Of a stretch of 64,000 bases of DNA, positions 20,456 through 36,491 are shown piece by piece (the stretch's first letter is position 1; each line of letters begins with the position of its first letter). The stretch spans positions 1-64,000 of the forward strand of contig JAJDBF010000033.1 of NCBI GenBank assembly GCA_029261535.1. The letters are read 5' to 3'. The stretch is from Nitrospinaceae bacterium (GTDB taxonomy: Bacteria > Nitrospinota > Nitrospinia > Nitrospinales > Nitrospinaceae). Below the pieces are notes generated by a model. That model saw only the letters and a program-made list of their open reading frames with translations. It did not search any database and was not told where the DNA came from. The position numbers and the translations under genes were made by a program.

Positions 20456-21244
20456 TTGACTCATAAAGTGATTTTGCACTTTGGCCTTCTGCTCGTCCTT
20501 ATTTTTGTGAGCGGAAAATTTGTGCAGGCGCAGGAAGACGCGCACTACCCCAATCCTTACCGGGAAATGACCCACGACATGGTTCTTATTCCTGCTGGAA
20601 ATTTTGAAAGGGGATGCGACCTGCTTGGGCCGGAGCACGGGGCACCACAGCATACTGTTTATCTTGATCGATTTTTAATCGATAAGTTTGAAATCACCAA
20701 CCAGCGTTTTGAAGAGGTGATGCCCGATCACAAACTGCGGCGCAGTAAATTATCACGCTGTGATCGTTGTCCGGTTTCTAAAGTGACCTGGTATGAAGCG
20801 GCGGATTATTGTCATTTGGTGGGCAAGGCTCTACCCAGTGAAGCACAATGGGAAAAAGCGGCGGGTGGTAACACCGGGTGCGAATATCCATGGGGGCTCG
20901 AGTTCGATCCAGAAAAGGAGTTGGCCCACGGAAAGAAAAAGTTGAAAGTGGGAGCGACCAAGGTCGGGAGCTATCCTCCAAATAAATACGGCGTGTTTGA
21001 CATGGCAGGCAACCTTTGGGAGTGGGTGGCAGACTGGTATTCTCCCCAGTATTATTTTAGAGAAGTGATGTACAATCCACGAGGTCCCAGAAGTGGGGTC
21101 ATGAAAACGCGTCGCGGTGGGGCCTGGTCGGATCATACGAATGGCATGAAAGTCGGCTACCGCGACTGGAGTTATCCGTTTTCGAGGAGTTACAGTGATA
21201 TCGGATTCCGCTGTGCTATCAGCTTGGGGCCAAAATTAAAATGA
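20456..21244 (+). CDS. Exported SUMF1/formylglycine-enzyme-like protein, without the catalytic cysteines
   Basis: A signal peptide or anchor (about residues 4-24, ending FVQAQ) precedes a complete SUMF1-type domain. Visible motifs are DMVLIPAGNFERG, FLIDKFEITNQRF, VTWYEAADYC, LPSEAQWEKAA, GVFDMAGNLWEWVADWY, RRGGAW and GFRCA. Authentic formylglycine-generating enzymes have Cys residues in the RGGSW...CR region; here that region reads RDWSYPFSRSY, without Cys. It is therefore unlikely to activate sulfatases and may be a binding or structural member of the fold. The start is TTG 20456 or GTG 20468. The stop overlaps the ATG of the LRR gene (ATGA). Confidence 0.85.
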   Translation: MTHKVILHFGLLLVLIFVSGKFVQAQEDAHYPNPYREMTHDMVLIPAGNFERGCDLLGPEHGAPQHTVYLDRFLIDKFEITNQRFEEVMPDHKLRRSKLSRCDRCPVSKVTWYEAADYCHLVGKALPSEAQWEKAAGGNTGCEYPWGLEFDPEKELAHGKKKLKVGATKVGSYPPNKYGVFDMAGNLWEWVADWYSPQYYFREVMYNPRGPRSGVMKTRRGGAWSDHTNGMKVGYRDWSYPFSRSYSDIGFRCAISLGPKLK

Positions 21245-21972
21245 CTGAAAAATCAAAACTTGAATACATTTCCCGGCTGGTAACAGATCAGCTGAATGAG
21301 TCGGGTGATTCGCTCGAGATGAAAAATAAATTTATTGGCGATGAAGGACTGGAGGCTCTGGTTCAGGTGGGCCGGTTGGAAGAGGTGGAAAACCTGGACC
21401 TGTCGCGCAATCATCTGACGCACCGGTCGATCCCGGTGCTTGCGAACTGTACCCGTTTTACTTCATTGAAGCGATTGTATATTGGAGAAAATAACCTTGG
21501 GGATCGCGGAGCCCTGGCACTCGCCAATGCGGTTTTTCTGCCGCAGTTGGTTCACTTTGATGCGCGCTTCAACCACATAGGGGAGGCGGGCGGTGTGGCT
21601 TTGGGAAAGGCACCGTTTAAAAAAGTTCAGGTGTTCATTCTTCAGGATAATCAAACAGGCGACGATTGTGTTAAGGCCCTGGCTCTTAATCCCGGATTTA
21701 TGCATGTGCGGAAACTGAACCTGTATCGGACAGAGTTGTCGGACAGCAGTATAAAAACCCTGGCTAAATCAAAAGTGCTTAAAAAACTGAAGCACCTGAA
21801 TCTGGCCCGGAATATTTTAAGGTTGGATTCTGCGGTGGCCCTTGCCAAAACTAAAACCTTGATCAACATAGAAACCCTGATGATGTTTGATACATTCATC
21901 GGCGATAAGGGAGCCGAGGCTTTGACAAAATCGTCTACACTCTCTAATTTAAAAACGCTGAGAATGACCTGA
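21241..21972 (+). CDS. Leucine-rich-repeat protein (RNI-like)
   Basis: The 243 residues contain successive repeats of about 26-28 residues of the ribonuclease-inhibitor type, with units such as LKRLYIGENNLGDRGALALA, VRKLNLYRTELSDSSI and LKHLNLARNILRLDSAVALA. No signal peptide or membrane helix is seen, so it is probably cytoplasmic. It overlaps the preceding SUMF1-like gene by four bases and should be co-translated. A second, longer protein of the same type is at 50414. These repeats form curved protein-binding surfaces; the partner is unknown. Confidence 0.85.
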   Translation: MTEKSKLEYISRLVTDQLNESGDSLEMKNKFIGDEGLEALVQVGRLEEVENLDLSRNHLTHRSIPVLANCTRFTSLKRLYIGENNLGDRGALALANAVFLPQLVHFDARFNHIGEAGGVALGKAPFKKVQVFILQDNQTGDDCVKALALNPGFMHVRKLNLYRTELSDSSIKTLAKSKVLKKLKHLNLARNILRLDSAVALAKTKTLINIETLMMFDTFIGDKGAEALTKSSTLSNLKTLRMT

Positions 21973-23187: not shown

Positions 23188-26100
23188 ATGAATTTGAAAA
23201 TCCTGACTTTTAACTGGCACGAACCTTATATTTGTAACCTGTCGGGGCTGAACCACGCCTTTTATGTGGTCGCGCCTGAGATTGCTCCTGGAAGGTTCCG
23301 GGAGTGGGACACCCGGATGCGTCCGATCCCTTCCAATTGCCAACTGATTTCAATCGAGCAGGCAAAAGAAAAATTGCAGGAAGGTGATTTCGATCTGGCT
23401 CTGGCCCACAATGTTAAAGACCTGTTGTGGCTGAAGGAATATGATGTTCCCAAGATATGTGTCTTCCATTGCCGCCTGACGACTGAACTTGCCCTTAGCC
23501 AATCCCCAATTAATAAATCCGACTACTTGAATACGGTCAAGGGTTTGCTTGTAGATGTTCACTCTATATTTATTTCAGAAAACAAAAAAGCGGATTGGAA
23601 CCTTCCTGGCGCAGTGATTTCTCATGGAATTGATGTCGACCAGTTTCCGGAATATTCAGGAGAACAAGTTTGCATTCTGCGAGTGGGAAATCTTTTGAAA
23701 GAGATGGATATTGCTCGGGGTTTCTCCAAGAGTGAAAAAATTCTTTCAGGACTTCCTAGTGCGACACTTGGATTGAACCCGACATTGCCAGGGGCACGTT
23801 TATCGGAAAGTTATGAAGATTTGCTGGAGCATTATCGACAGTGTCGAGTGTATCTAAATACCTTGCCACCTGCCTACGAAGATGGACACAATCTGTCTTT
23901 GCTGGAAGCGATGGCAACGGGTATGCCGGTTATTTCTACAGCCCATCCGGAATCCCCTGTAAAAGATGGCATAAACGGATTTATCTCGGATGACCTGGAT
24001 TATTTGAGAGCAAAGTGTGAGGAACTATTGAAGGATGAAGGGCAGGCGGTAAAGCTTGGAAAAAATGCGAGGCAAACTGTGCGGGATCAATTTCCCATGG
24101 AGGGATTTCTCTCTGGCTGGAATCGTGAAATTGAAATTTGTATCAAGGAATATTTGAAAAGTCGGGGTTACCATCGAGCGAATTTTAAAATTCCATTTTC
24201 CGAGTTGAAGCGGAAAAATATTCTGATGGACTTTGTTTCCCACCCTGCGACCACCGCGTACTATCTGGAACGAGCTTTCCGCCAGCATCACAATGTTATC
24301 ACCTGCGGGGCAATGATTAACCTGGACGTCATTCATAAATGGGATCTGGGAGAATTGAAATGGCCTGTCGAGCCTCAGGATATTTTTCGAGGAACGGGTG
24401 AAGGTGTAGATTCTGTCCTCAAGCAATTGCCTGCCGGATGGTCTCCGGACTTTTACCTTTATGTCGAAACGGGATTGTCTGATATTCCGGTGGACCTCGA
24501 AGAGCTCACCATTCCCAAAGTGTGCTATCTCATTGACACGCATTTGCATCTCGAAAAACATATCGAAATAGCGGCGAGGTTTGACGTTGTTTTCCTGGCG
24601 CAAAAAGAATACGTCGATACCGTAAAATCGAAAACGAACAGTGAGGTGTTTTGGCTTCCTCTCGGATGCGACCCGGAAATCCACCGGAAAGTGGATGTTG
24701 AAAAGCTATGGGATGTAGGTTTTGTTGGGAGCGTGACACCGGCAAACCCACGGCGCAAGCAGTTGCTGGACCTTATCCAAACCCGGTTCGACTTAAAAGT
24801 AGACCGGAAATTTATGGATGAAATGGCACGGTTGTTTTGCCAATCCAGAATTGTTTTCAACAACGCCATTCGCGATGATCTCAACATGCGTGTGTTTGAG
24901 GTGCTTTGTACTGGCAGTTTGCTGGTGACGGATGATGCGGTTGGGTTGACCGAGCTGTTTGTGGAGGGAAAACATTTTGTTAAATATGAGGACGATAATC
25001 TATTAGAAACTGTCCGGTATTATCTTGATCATCCTGACGAGCGGGAAATAGTTGCGAAGGCGGGCCGTGAGAAAGTGCTTGCCAGTCACACCTACGGCCA
25101 TCGCATAAAACAAATAATCGAGACCTTGAATAGCCTGTACTCATCTCCAGAAAATAAACCCAAAAAATCTTCTGTAGTCAAAGAGGCTGACTCCACTTAC
25201 TATCAACACATCCGGCATGACATGTTGCCCTTGATTCCTCAAGAGGCACGCTCGATTCTTGAAATTGGATGTGGTGCTGGAAGAACCGGCCAATACCTGA
25301 AGGAACGAAACGGGGCATTTGTTGCTGGGGTTGAGTTAAATGAGACAGTCGCTCTTGAAGCTAAAGAAGGTTTGAATGAAGTGACCGTTGGCGATATCGA
25401 AAAACTTGAGCTTGCTTACGAGCCTGCAAGCTTTGATTGTGTTTTATGTTTAGATGTTTTGGAGCATCTGGTGAATCCTTTGGATGTACTGAAAAAACTA
25501 AAAACTTTTTTAACACCTGGAGGCGTTCTGGTTGCCAGCATTCCCAATGTTCAATTTTTCGGAATTATCAATCATCTGGCTGAAGGCAATTGGACCTATC
25601 AAGATGAGGGAATTCTGGACAGGACCCATCTCAGGTTTTTTACTTTCAAGGAAATTGAAACCCTGTTCAAGGATGCCGGTTTTGAAATGGGAGTGGTAGA
25701 GGAAACCCTTGATCCTCAATATGAAGAGTATTTGAAATCTGGGCAGACCAGTTTGAAAGTGGGACGAGTGACCATTCATGATTTGACCCCGGAGGAACTG
25801 CGACGATTCTTTGTATTCCAATATCGATTCACGGTTAGCCTTCCTGAAAATAATCAGACCGCTGCAACTGAGAGTTCAAGCTTTCAATCCAATATCGAGC
25901 AACAATTGAGCGATGCCAAATTATTCGAGCAGGATGAGCAATGGTCGAAGGCACTCAATATTTATAATGGAATATTGGAGAGCCATCCAAAAGAACTGAA
26001 AGGCTGGGAGGGTAAAGGAAATTGCCACCTGAGGCTTCAGGAGTTCAAACAATCGCAATCAGCATTTGCAAAAGGACATGACATCAATCCAGATTCACCC

Positions 26101-26565
26101 GAAATAATATTAGGACTTGCTGTGTTGGCTTTTCAGATTAAGGACTTTATTCAGGCGGAAAACTGGTTTGAAACAGTATTGAATATCGACTCGCACAAGG
26201 ACCGGGGTTTGTGCGGACTGGGGATGTTGAAGCAGACGATGGATGATAACAGCACTGCGATGGAATTTTACGCGGAAGCTCTCAGGATTAATCCAGAAAA
26301 TAATACGGCTATGGCATCAATATTAAAGCTTGCTTATTCCACTGGTGAATTCGGGTTGGCTGAAACGGTACTAAAAAACTACCTTGATGTTCATCCGGCA
26401 AATTTGAATATGTTATTTGGTCTGGCTGGGATTTACTTTGAACAGGCTCAATTTGAAGAGGCGCGCGAGGTCATCGAGCGAATTTTTATATTTGATGATA
26501 ATCACTCAGATGCCAATCAATTATTAGAGAAAATTCAAAGCCAGCCTACATATTCTAAAGGATAG
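23188..26565 (+). CDS. Four-module glycosylation protein: GT family 1-like, CgeB-like GT, methyltransferase, TPR
   Basis: The 1125-residue protein contains four units. Residues about 1-335 are a group-1 glycosyltransferase (GHNLSLLEAMATGMPVI and DGINGFI near its end). Residues 335-650 resemble CgeB-type glycosyltransferases (DVGFVGSVTP, NMRVFEVLCTGSLLV). Residues 665-880 are a class I SAM-dependent methyltransferase (ILEIGCGAGRTG, FDCVLCLDVLEHL, LTPGGVL). Residues about 890-1120 are TPR repeats. The ATG follows GGGGAGG at 23174-23180. It opens a three-gene operon of sugar transferases. Flagellin or surface-glycan modification is a reasonable inference because the next protein has a Maf-like N-terminus. 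Confidence 0.88.
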   Translation: MNLKILTFNWHEPYICNLSGLNHAFYVVAPEIAPGRFREWDTRMRPIPSNCQLISIEQAKEKLQEGDFDLALAHNVKDLLWLKEYDVPKICVFHCRLTTELALSQSPINKSDYLNTVKGLLVDVHSIFISENKKADWNLPGAVISHGIDVDQFPEYSGEQVCILRVGNLLKEMDIARGFSKSEKILSGLPSATLGLNPTLPGARLSESYEDLLEHYRQCRVYLNTLPPAYEDGHNLSLLEAMATGMPVISTAHPESPVKDGINGFISDDLDYLRAKCEELLKDEGQAVKLGKNARQTVRDQFPMEGFLSGWNREIEICIKEYLKSRGYHRANFKIPFSELKRKNILMDFVSHPATTAYYLERAFRQHHNVITCGAMINLDVIHKWDLGELKWPVEPQDIFRGTGEGVDSVLKQLPAGWSPDFYLYVETGLSDIPVDLEELTIPKVCYLIDTHLHLEKHIEIAARFDVVFLAQKEYVDTVKSKTNSEVFWLPLGCDPEIHRKVDVEKLWDVGFVGSVTPANPRRKQLLDLIQTRFDLKVDRKFMDEMARLFCQSRIVFNNAIRDDLNMRVFEVLCTGSLLVTDDAVGLTELFVEGKHFVKYEDDNLLETVRYYLDHPDEREIVAKAGREKVLASHTYGHRIKQIIETLNSLYSSPENKPKKSSVVKEADSTYYQHIRHDMLPLIPQEARSILEIGCGAGRTGQYLKERNGAFVAGVELNETVALEAKEGLNEVTVGDIEKLELAYEPASFDCVLCLDVLEHLVNPLDVLKKLKTFLTPGGVLVASIPNVQFFGIINHLAEGNWTYQDEGILDRTHLRFFTFKEIETLFKDAGFEMGVVEETLDPQYEEYLKSGQTSLKVGRVTIHDLTPEELRRFFVFQYRFTVSLPENNQTAATESSSFQSNIEQQLSDAKLFEQDEQWSKALNIYNGILESHPKELKGWEGKGNCHLRLQEFKQSQSAFAKGHDINPDSPEIILGLAVLAFQIKDFIQAENWFETVLNIDSHKDRGLCGLGMLKQTMDDNSTAMEFYAEALRINPENNTAMASILKLAYSTGEFGLAETVLKNYLDVHPANLNMLFGLAGIYFEQAQFEEAREVIERIFIFDDNHSDANQLLEKIQSQPTYSKG

Positions 26566-34210: not shown

Positions 34211-34969
34211 TCAATCCCTTGCCGATAGAGCACAGCGGAATCCTGTGTCCCACGACCGCATGCCAGGGGGCGCGGGGTTGCGGAAAGCCAGAGTGGCAAA
34301 CACCTCCAAAAAACCGTGTTCCCGTTTATTGTAAGCCCCGCCCCGGATTACCCGGAGTTTCTTCTTATAATTTGGGTCCTTGTAAGTCGCCCCCGGATAA
34401 CCGGTGTAAGCACTTGATGTCCACTCCGAAACATTGCCATTCATATCAAAAAGACCGAACACGCTTTTATCTTGAGGAAAACTTCCGATCGGTTTTACCA
34501 ATTTCCCAAAGTTACCTTTCTCTCTGCTAAATTCATTTCCCCAGACGAACGCCAAGCCATCAGGACCCCGCGCCGCTTTTTCCCATTCAAATTCTGTCGG
34601 AAGTCGTTTGTTCAACCAGAAGCAGTAAGCCTCGGCCTCAAACCAGGAAACTCCTCGCACCGGATGATCGGCCCGGCCCTCGGCATATTTTGCCTTGGGT
34701 TTGAAATGGATAAAATCGCCATAAGTCACTTCATATTTATCTATGTAAAAAGAAGGGGACGTACCGGTTTGGCTGGGGTAGGCGTTCTGGCTTGAGGTGG
34801 AGTCGGACATAAACGAAGACAGGTTGGATGAAGGATCGGACCCAAAAATAAAATCTCCCGCAGGGACCAGAACCATGCCCGTTGGGGACTTGGCGTTATC
34901 GCCAGAGAAGGCCAGGGCCGGGATGCCGAGAGACAGAAGCAGGCAGAGCGACAGGAGAGTGTGTTTCAA
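34211..34969 (-). CDS. Exported SUMF1-like protein, without catalytic cysteines
   Basis: A clear signal peptide (MKHTLLSLCLLLSLGIPALAF) leads into a SUMF1 domain: GMVLVPAGDFIFGSD, FYIDKYEVTYGDF, PVRGVSWFEAEAYC, LPTEFEWEKAARG, GLFDMNGNVSEWTSSAY, VIRGGAYN and GFRCALS. The segment between RGGAYN and GFRCA has no Cys, so enzymatic formylglycine formation is unlikely. The start overlaps the stop of the HmuY-like gene by four bases, so the two are translationally coupled. Together they are probably exported; the SUMF1-like member may bind the HmuY-like one or a common ligand. It is related to the protein at 20456. Confidence 0.85.
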   Translation of the reverse strand: MKHTLLSLCLLLSLGIPALAFSGDNAKSPTGMVLVPAGDFIFGSDPSSNLSSFMSDSTSSQNAYPSQTGTSPSFYIDKYEVTYGDFIHFKPKAKYAEGRADHPVRGVSWFEAEAYCFWLNKRLPTEFEWEKAARGPDGLAFVWGNEFSREKGNFGKLVKPIGSFPQDKSVFGLFDMNGNVSEWTSSAYTGYPGATYKDPNYKKKLRVIRGGAYNKREHGFLEVFATLAFRNPAPPGMRSWDTGFRCALSARD

Positions 34970-35697
34970 TTGACAGCGACTGTTGTCATCTTGTCAGCGG
35001 TGTCTGTCTCCGCAGATTTCTTTTTGGGAGGCGGAAAGTCGGTCTCGCCGGGGGGGATATAAACATATTCCAGAGTCAGGCAGGCAGCCTCATCGCGGGT
35101 GCACATTCCAGTGAGGCAATCGGATTCCTTTTGGTGGCAGTAATAATTCAGAATCCGCATTTTCATGTGGCCCTGCTCAGCCGTTCGTACCATATAGACC
35201 GATTTTTTGGACTCGATATTATGGGTCCGTGTTCTGTAGTTGTACCAGCCTGAAATAGCATCATTGCGGAGGCTACCCCACTTTCGGGTGTCCTCGATAA
35301 AGGGGCCGGGAGTCACCTTTTGAATGCCGTTAATTTTTACCGGCCCGAGGTCCATCACTCCCACCCCGCCCCCTCCGTGGGTGGCACCACTGTTGGTGAT
35401 CACCTTGGTCCGCTGAAACCCGATGTCCCAATCCATATGGACCAGTTTATTCAGGTTATTTTCCAGATCCTCCACCTGATGGGTCTTTTTTGAGGAGAAA
35501 TCGACCAGAGTCCAGGCATCGCGGGACGTGGCATCGACTTTGATAAGGGGATTGTGGGTAGAAATTTTTTTTAGTTTCTTCGGCGGTAGAGGACGGTTTT
35601 CAAACTCCTCAATATTATCTCCCATGTAATTCATGGCAACATTGAAAAACAGGGAAGCCCCCATAAGAATGGCGATAACGGTCATATTGCTGTTCAT
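34966..35697 (-). CDS. HmuY-like (putative heme-binding) membrane-anchored protein
   Basis: An N-terminal hydrophobic segment (MTVIAILMGASLFFNVAMNY) acts as signal or anchor. The rest matches the HmuY pattern as I remember it: DAWTLVDFSSKK, WDIGFQRTKVITNSGATHGGGGVGVMDLG, a later WYNYRT and VYMVRTAEQGHMKMRILNYY. HmuY proteins bind heme outside the cell and are best known in Bacteroidetes. The C-terminal region adds a Cys-rich part (YCHQKESDCLTGMCTRDEAAC) that could form disulfides or bind metal. Heme ligands cannot be assigned from sequence alone. It is the first gene of the pair with the SUMF1-like protein. Confidence 0.65.
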   Translation of the reverse strand: MNSNMTVIAILMGASLFFNVAMNYMGDNIEEFENRPLPPKKLKKISTHNPLIKVDATSRDAWTLVDFSSKKTHQVEDLENNLNKLVHMDWDIGFQRTKVITNSGATHGGGGVGVMDLGPVKINGIQKVTPGPFIEDTRKWGSLRNDAISGWYNYRTRTHNIESKKSVYMVRTAEQGHMKMRILNYYCHQKESDCLTGMCTRDEAACLTLEYVYIPPGETDFPPPKKKSAETDTADKMTTVAVN

Positions 35698-35703
35698 AAA
35701 ACC

Positions 35704-35712
35704 ATTGTACCA
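35704..35712 (-). promoter_or_regulatory. Extended -10 promoter abutting the HmuY-like gene
   Basis: On the minus strand TGGTACAAT (TGn plus TACAAT) ends six bases before the ATG at 35697. No ribosome-binding site fits in between, which suggests a leaderless transcript. Confidence 0.5.
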
Positions 35713-35794
35713 AAGCCTGCCATTCTGAATCGAAAAAAATTCCGGGTCGGGCAGGTTAACGATTGATGAAAAAAGAGGTTATGGATTTTCGGGC

Positions 35795-35823
35795 TTGGGC
35801 TTGTGACCAGGTTGAAGTATACT
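35795..35823 (+). promoter_or_regulatory. Candidate promoter for the gene at 35862
   Basis: TTGGGC (35795-35800), 17 bases, then TATACT (35818-35823). The -10 is strong and the -35 is weak. The leader would be about 30 bases. Confidence 0.4.
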
Positions 35824-35861
35824 TATGAGGTTAATCTTAAGAGTCACCCGCCCCAAATACC

Positions 35862-36491
35862 ATGCCTGAAAAACGTCATTTCAAATTTGAAAAGGTCCAG
35901 ATTGAAAATTTCCTCAAGAAGGAGTTTGAAAAAACCTTCAAGGGAACCGGGCGAATTTCCATTCGCAAACGGCAAAAATTCATGAGTCGGATCAACAAAA
36001 AAGTAGGAAAACAATTCGGCAAGGATGTGTTGTGTCTGGTCGATTTTACCCGGCAGGGTTTTGTCACCCTCGTATCGCCGACGCATCAGGAATCGACTCA
36101 AAAAGGAAAGTTGTATTTTTCCTTCGTCCATCCCCAGGTGGCTTACACCGGACATTGCATTGACCGTTTCAGCGAGCGCACGGGTGCCCGCGATAATTGT
36201 GTTTTTCTTCTTGATGAATTCCTTGAGGAGGCCATGCTGACGTTTGGATTGCATGACGGTTACCTCGTCTGCCGCTCCGGCGTGTTTGCCTACATCGTTG
36301 AGCAGGATCGCCTGATTATTAAAACCTTCATCAATTCCGAATTGTTGTCCGATGATCAAATCCGTGAATTTTACGGATGGGATGTCGTGGCCAACTTCAG
36401 TCCCGATTGCATCACCAAGGAAATGGACAATTCCGACTTCAGGGTTCAGGACGAGCCCTCGCCTCAATTTTTACCAACCGGGGATCGGTAG
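35862..36491 (+). CDS. Hypothetical protein (209 residues)
   Basis: I do not recognise a family. The protein begins with a basic, helical region (FKFEKVQIENFLKKEFEKTF, RISIRKRQKFMSRINKK). A mixed alpha/beta core holds HCIDRFSERTG and DGYLVCRSGVFAYIVEQDRLIIKTFI. There is no signal peptide or membrane helix. The core sequence recalls phage- or plasmid-type hypothetical proteins whose HxxxRFxER motif is nuclease- or nucleotide-related, but that is a weak impression. It stands alone between divergent and downstream operons, with a possible promoter at 35795. Confidence 0.7.
   Translation: MPEKRHFKFEKVQIENFLKKEFEKTFKGTGRISIRKRQKFMSRINKKVGKQFGKDVLCLVDFTRQGFVTLVSPTHQESTQKGKLYFSFVHPQVAYTGHCIDRFSERTGARDNCVFLLDEFLEEAMLTFGLHDGYLVCRSGVFAYIVEQDRLIIKTFINSELLSDDQIREFYGWDVVANFSPDCITKEMDNSDFRVQDEPSPQFLPTGDR

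What the first reader, a model, noticed from the sequence alone, without database searches (positions are those of the whole stretch)
34211..35712. Overlapping pair: HmuY-like heme-binding protein plus exported SUMF1-like protein
The two genes overlap by four bases and both products are exported or membrane-anchored. HmuY proteins are known from Bacteroidetes heme uptake. Pairing with a cysteine-less SUMF1 fold is new to me. The HmuY-like protein also has a Cys-rich tail. Together they could be a heme or metal capture device on the surface.
Basis: partly seen in the sequence, partly recalled or inferred. Interest (0 to 1): 0.6.

Follow-up and report, generated by a model that had tools for sequence, protein, structure and literature searches.

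The report
Conserved HmuY plus SUMF1-fold periplasmic pair
In marine nitrite-oxidising bacteria of the Nitrospina group, a relative of a haem-grabbing protein is always encoded together with an enzyme-like protein that has lost its active site; gene neighbours of its relatives suggest the two help supply or build respiratory haem or copper proteins inside the cell envelope rather than capture haem at the surface.

Summary
Gene 34966-35697(-) is a true HmuY-family protein (Pfam E=1.5e-11; the twelve significant structural matches of its model are all HmuY-family structures). Gene 34211-34969(-) is a SUMF1/FGE-fold protein without the two catalytic cysteines. They overlap by TTGA. The pair is fixed in the Nitrospina order: 48 of 64 genomes have this HmuY and all 48 have this FGE directly downstream; neither orthologue was found in the 13 other genomes of the phylum. 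His159 and Cys187/194/199/206 are invariant in all 48.

"Surface haem capture" is weak. The HmuY has an inner-membrane anchor and no lipobox, no TonB receptor lies near, and only one invariant haem-ligand candidate exists. Relatives point to respiration: the paralogue sits with DUF420/CtaM (oxidase assembly); outgroup copies sit in a COX2-COX1-CtaB-SCO1 run, beside a c554-type cytochrome, near a cupredoxin and dihaem cytochrome, and beside an FGE with a haem-c motif.

Best explanation (about 0.4): an inner-membrane-tethered periplasmic HmuY domain and a SUMF1-fold partner that handle haem or copper for respiratory protein assembly. Haem binding and complex formation are untested. New variant of known families.

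The parts
34966..35697 (-). HmuY-family gene, 243 aa, inner-membrane anchored, domain in the periplasm
   Evidence: PF14064 E=1.5e-11; Foldseek hits all HmuY family; 48 orthologues in the order
35599..35691 (-). N-terminal hydrophobic helix and conserved stem start (residues 3-33)
   Evidence: helix 3-33 in the model; hydropathy and charge pattern; stem conserved in the alignment
35125..35523 (-). HmuY domain (residues 59-191)
   Evidence: Pfam match
35221..35223 (-). Invariant His159, eight residues after invariant Trp151; only invariant haem-ligand candidate of His/Met type
   Evidence: 48/48 orthologues and 30/30 paralogues, and all nine outgroup HmuY sequences
35080..35139 (-). Four-cysteine segment C187-C194-C199-C206
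   Evidence: invariant 48/48; outer pair shared with the paralogue and lost as a pair in L102
34966..34969 (-). TTGA stop/start overlap of the two genes
   Evidence: 27 of 42 parsed loci overlap by 4 nt; TTG start in 38 of 42
34211..34969 (-). SUMF1/FGE-fold partner gene, 252 aa, exported
   Evidence: PF03781 E=1.2e-48; directly downstream of HmuY in 48/48 genomes
34907..34969 (-). Signal peptide of the partner (about residues 1-21); lipobox in most orthologues
   Evidence: sequence MKHTLLSLCLLLSLGIPALA; orthologue comparison
34292..34336 (-). Degenerate active-site segment (residues 212-226, AYNKREHGFLEVFAT), no catalytic Cys, invariant H218 and F224
   Evidence: alignment with FGE structures and orthologues
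35698..35861 (.). Divergent intergenic region between the pair and orf209-ftsE-ftsX; presumed promoter region
   Evidence: gene order conserved in most loci of the order; no promoter signal beyond chance

Best explanation
The two genes form a translationally coupled operon of the Nitrospina order. The first product is a HmuY-fold domain hung from the inner membrane into the periplasm. The second is a SUMF1-fold protein without FGE chemistry, usually a lipoprotein and here a soluble periplasmic protein, that acts as its partner. Most likely the HmuY domain briefly holds haem (His159 as one axial ligand) or copper and passes it to a respiratory protein, while the SUMF1-fold partner docks the client or the HmuY stem. 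It would thus work like a periplasmic assembly factor for cytochromes or oxidases, not like a surface haemophore. Shown: fold families, overlap, conservation of the pair, loss of the FGE active site. Supported by sequence: the membrane anchor and export. Inferred: complex formation, ligand, and role in respiratory assembly.
For: HmuY family by profile, by orthologue profile against solved structures and by fold. Pair in 48/48 genomes with a conserved start/stop overlap and matching distribution of the two orthologues. Inner-membrane anchor without lipobox. Invariant His159 in the hairpin that carries the second haem ligand in HmuY/Tfo (ligands in PMC8911585). Paralogue in an operon with DUF420/CtaM (function in PMC4958251 and PMC13344008). 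Outgroup HmuY genes beside COX2-COX1-UbiA(CtaB)-SCO1 (L100), a c554-type cytochrome (L101), a cupredoxin and dihaem cytochrome plus FGE (L098), and an FGE with a CXXCH motif (L096).
Against: The window pair itself has no respiratory gene next to it; its neighbours are RNase E/G, orf209, ftsE and ftsX. Only one haem-ligand candidate is invariant. Three of the f9 outgroup loci and L097 show no respiratory neighbour. The respiratory link is through paralogues and could have changed in this diverged copy (longer branch). No binding or interaction data.
Confidence: 0.4

Rival explanations
1. A structural or regulatory envelope module tied to cell division: the SUMF1-fold lipoprotein and the inner-membrane HmuY bridge the envelope and act with the divergent orf209-ftsE-ftsX and M23-peptidase genes, much as SUMF1-fold GldK/PorK is a scaffold in another secretion machine. 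No cofactor is carried.
For: Neighbourhood RNase E/G - pair - orf209 - ftsE - ftsX conserved across the order; M23 peptidase downstream; SUMF1-fold PorK is a solved lipoprotein relative by sequence.
Against: RNase E/G and phosphoglycerate kinase are also syntenic, so the block may simply be inherited vertically; the pair is divergent from ftsEX, not in its operon; HmuY relatives elsewhere are not near division genes.
Confidence: 0.2
2. A thiol or metal device: the four invariant cysteines of the HmuY tail bind a metal (copper or zinc) or act as a redox relay, with the SUMF1-fold partner as a holder; haem is not involved.
For: Four Cys invariant in 48/48; a second Cys pair inserted relative to the paralogue; no second conserved His/Met haem ligand; relatives near SCO1 and cupredoxin genes.
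Against: C187 and C206 behave like a structural disulfide, lost together in L102; in the periplasm the C194/C199 pair is most simply a second structural disulfide.
Confidence: 0.15
3. One reading: a surface device that captures haem or metal from outside and hands it to an uptake receptor.
For: HmuY fold; both products exported; TonB-dependent receptors exist in the genome (3 matches).
Against: Inner-membrane anchor and no lipobox in HmuY; no receptor or transporter gene beside the pair; genomes with very few or no detected TonB receptors still keep the pair (G010 with 0, G004 with 1).
Confidence: 0.12

Closest known systems
HmuY family (PF14064): P. gingivalis HmuY, T. forsythia Tfo, B. vulgatus Bvu, P. 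intermedia PinO/PinA
   Same: Same domain by profile and fold; a candidate ligand His in the same hairpin as the second axial ligand
   Different: Inner-membrane anchored instead of a surface lipoprotein; no adjacent TonB receptor; extra four-Cys segment; only one of the two axial ligands recognisable; partnered with a SUMF1-fold protein
Formylglycine-generating enzyme / SUMF1 (PF03781), and the inactive paralogue SUMF2
   Same: Same domain by profile; SUMF2 (1y4j) is among the best matches
   Different: No catalytic Cys pair in any orthologue; obligate neighbour of HmuY; invariant H218 and F224 in the degenerate active-site segment
GldK/PorK (SUMF1-fold lipoprotein of the T9SS ring)
   Same: Exported SUMF1-fold protein, lipoprotein in most orthologues, non-enzymatic
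   Different: Far below the GldK model's cut-off (70 against 350 bits); no T9SS genes beside it
Oxidase assembly factors CtaM (DUF420) and SCO1
   Same: Genomic company of HmuY relatives in this phylum; membrane-tethered cofactor handling, as an analogy of working
   Different: No sequence relation; the function of the HmuY proteins here is untested

Membership tests
HmuY family (PF14064) | Profile match over the curated cut-off | tested here: met
   45.1 bits against 27
HmuY family (PF14064) | HmuY fold | tested here: met
   All 12 Foldseek matches at E<=0.001 are HmuY-family chains, probability 1.00
HmuY-type haemophore | Surface lipoprotein | tested here: not met
   No lipobox; N-terminal membrane helix in orthologues and paralogues
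HmuY-type haemophore | Gene linked to a TonB-dependent haem receptor | tested here: not met
   Neighbours are FGE, RNase E/G, orf209, ftsE, ftsX
HmuY-type haemophore | Two axial haem ligands (His/His or Met/Met) | tested here: inconclusive
   Only H159 is an invariant His/Met in the domain; ligands vary widely in the family (PMC8911585, PMC6200708)
HmuY-type haemophore | Haem binding | not testable with these tools
   Needs purified protein
Formylglycine-generating enzyme | FGE-sulfatase domain | tested here: met
   166 bits against 23.3
Formylglycine-generating enzyme | Two active-site cysteines | tested here: not met
   Absent in all orthologues examined
GldK/PorK | Match to the GldK equivalog model | tested here: not met
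   70 bits against a cut-off of 350
Respiratory oxidase or cytochrome assembly factor (analogy) | Genetic linkage to oxidase or cytochrome genes | tested here: inconclusive
   Seen for the paralogue (DUF420) and for outgroup loci L096, L098, L100, L101; not seen for the window pair itself

The most novel reading that the evidence does not exclude
HmuY-fold proteins of this phylum are a separate functional class: inner-membrane-tethered periplasmic haem (or copper) chaperones for respiratory complexes. In the Nitrospina order one of them has recruited an inactive SUMF1-fold protein as an obligate partner, so that two folds known from haem piracy and sulfatase maturation form a new respiratory assembly factor.
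Probability: 0.3. Interest if true: 0.65.

Novelty: new variant of a known kind. Interest (0 to 1): 0.5.

Why it matters
HmuY has been characterised chiefly as a haemophore of Bacteroidota (my reading of the papers found). A conserved, inner-membrane-anchored HmuY class in major marine nitrite oxidisers, with relatives linked to oxidase assembly genes and with an inactive SUMF1-fold partner, would widen what the fold does. It would also give a concrete candidate for how these organisms load haem or copper into their periplasmic respiratory chain. The literature searches found no paper that joins HmuY with Nitrospina, and none of the papers listed for HmuY/SUMF1 held both; only openly licensed papers were searched.

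Tried and rejected
Chance ORFs or a misread overlap: rejected; both are family members and the overlap is conserved. A c-type cytochrome: rejected for the window proteins, no CXXCH motif in either sequence. Active FGE: rejected, catalytic Cys absent. T9SS GldK/PorK: rejected on score. Weak Pfam hits of the HmuY protein to a picornavirus capsid domain and to DddA are below cut-off and ignored. The idea that the HmuY-FGE neighbours in L096 and L098 are the same orthologous pair: rejected by the FGE tree, where the L096 FGE groups with own-genome L119 (100/100) and the L098 FGE falls in another branch. The FGE structure model was too poor to use (mean pLDDT 58), so the partner's fold rests on sequence only. 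Promoter and terminator scans gave nothing beyond chance.

Full report
WHAT IS THERE. The window comes from a genome of the Nitrospina order: the two named relatives found with the HmuY protein are Nitrospina MAGs, and the genome tool sets out order, family and genus around it. On the minus strand lie two overlapping genes. The first, 34966-35697, encodes 243 aa; the second, 34211-34969, encodes 252 aa and starts at a TTG that shares TTGA with the stop of the first. The first product matches Pfam HmuY (E=1.5e-11) and the second the FGE-sulfatase/SUMF1 domain (E=1.2e-48).

IS THE HMUY CALL REAL? Yes. A profile of 21 orthologues matches the solved HmuY-family chains 3u22, 3h8t (P. gingivalis HmuY), 8b6a and 8b61 by sequence. 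The AlphaFold model (mean pLDDT 79) gives 12 Foldseek matches at E<=0.001, all of them HmuY-family chains with probability 1.00. The genome has a second HmuY gene (E=2.9e-26), and two HmuY genes are the rule in the order (60 of 61 relatives have at least one match). In a tree the window type and the second type are sister groups against the HmuY proteins of other families of the class (support 98/97, midpoint root), so they look like a duplication at the base of the order, with the window type the more diverged copy.

IS THE PAIR REAL? Of 77 genomes of the phylum searched, 48 carry the window-type HmuY, all in the order (64 genomes). All 48 have the orthologous SUMF1-fold gene directly downstream on the same strand. 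The SUMF1-fold orthologue was likewise found only in the order; one incomplete genome (G064) has only a fragment of it and no window-type HmuY hit. The junction is conserved: in 42 loci where the start could be parsed, 27 overlap by 4 nt and 7 have the stop followed directly by TTG; 38 of 42 use TTG. The usual arrangement is RNase E/G - [FGE <- HmuY] - orf209 -> ftsE -> ftsX.

ANATOMY. The HmuY protein has one N-terminal hydrophobic helix and no lipobox. The charge pattern (slightly positive before, negative after) favours an N-in anchor with the domain in the periplasm, and the stem after it (NYMxDNIxDFE...LPPK) is conserved. His159, eight residues after Trp151, is invariant in 48/48 orthologues and 30/30 paralogues and stands at the same place in all nine outgroup HmuY sequences. 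In PgHmuY and Tfo the second axial ligand lies in the corresponding hairpin, a few residues earlier (with ligand positions from PMC8911585; the numbering offset is my inference). No other His or Met in the domain is invariant. Four tail cysteines are invariant. C187/C206 correspond to the single pair of the paralogue, which is lost as a pair in outgroup L102, as expected of a disulfide; C194/C199 are extra. The SUMF1-fold protein lacks the catalytic Cys pair in every orthologue examined and has an invariant H218 and F224 there instead. It keeps C116 and C246. Most orthologues carry a lipobox, while the three genomes of the window's genus have a plain signal peptide.

CONTEXT OF RELATIVES. The second HmuY of the order is followed by p194 and then a DUF420 protein wherever the DNA held reaches that far (Pfam). 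DUF420 is the CtaM family, required for haem-copper oxidase assembly and proposed to act in haem insertion (PMC4958251) or copper export (PMC13344008). In other families of the class HmuY genes lie: at the end of a COX2-COX1-UbiA/CtaB-SCO1-112aa run (L100); next to a cytochrome c554-type protein (L101); upstream of an FGE, with a divergent cupredoxin and a nearby dihaem cytochrome c (L098); and directly before an FGE whose N-terminus has a CXXCH motif (L096). L097 and L102-L104 show no such neighbour. The FGE neighbours in L096 and L098 fall in other FGE branches than the window partner, so HmuY-FGE adjacency seems to have arisen more than once. Because this genome has 26 FGE-fold genes, and such genes are common in the phylum, I treat that as moderate evidence only.

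INTERPRETATION. Surface haem capture is not favoured: an inner-membrane anchor, no receptor nearby, respiratory company of the relatives, and genomes with hardly any detected TonB receptor that still keep the pair. The best reading is a periplasmic, membrane-tethered HmuY domain with an inactive SUMF1-fold partner that handles haem or copper for respiratory protein assembly (about 0.4). Ligand binding and complex formation are untested here.

STANDING. Both proteins belong to known domain families. The HmuY protein fails the lipoprotein and receptor-linkage features of the Bacteroidota haemophores, and the SUMF1 protein fails the FGE active-site test, so neither is filed as a haemophore or as an FGE. 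I found no openly licensed paper joining HmuY with Nitrospina, and none of the papers listed in the HmuY/SUMF1 search held both. Verdict: real, strongly conserved, a new variant of known families with an unexpected pairing; interest 0.5.

Noticed in passing
window 20456-21972: A second FGE-fold gene (20456-21244) follows a MTHFR gene and overlaps by 4 nt with a leucine-rich-repeat protein gene (21241-21972).
   Followed up: no
whole genome G000: 26 FGE/SUMF1-fold genes in one 3.45 Mb genome; those examined mostly lack the catalytic Cys pair, with L119 an exception that has a Cys pair in that region. An unexplained expansion.
   Followed up: partly
L100:4614-9774: In outgroup genome G063 a HmuY gene is the last of a run COX2, COX1, UbiA/CtaB, SCO1, 112-aa membrane protein, HmuY, all on one strand.
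   Followed up: partly
L096:2217-3152: FGE-fold protein with an N-terminal CXXCH motif (CTQCH) and an atypical CX3CH motif (CGFTCH), directly downstream of a HmuY gene.
   Followed up: partly
window 35862-36491: 209-aa conserved protein without a Pfam or NCBIfam match, between the pair and ftsEX in nearly all loci of the order.
   Followed up: no
L054:4839-8435: Operon-like run p319 - HmuY paralogue - p194 - DUF420 conserved through the order; p319 and p194 have no Pfam match.
   Followed up: partly
window 23188-26565: 1125-aa protein combining glycosyltransferase, methyltransferase and TPR domains, followed by two further glycosyltransferase genes.
   Followed up: no
L032 and L034 (same contig), ftsE: The tblastn match to FtsE is split with about 33 residues unmatched in that genome, perhaps a divergent stretch or an assembly error.
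   Followed up: no
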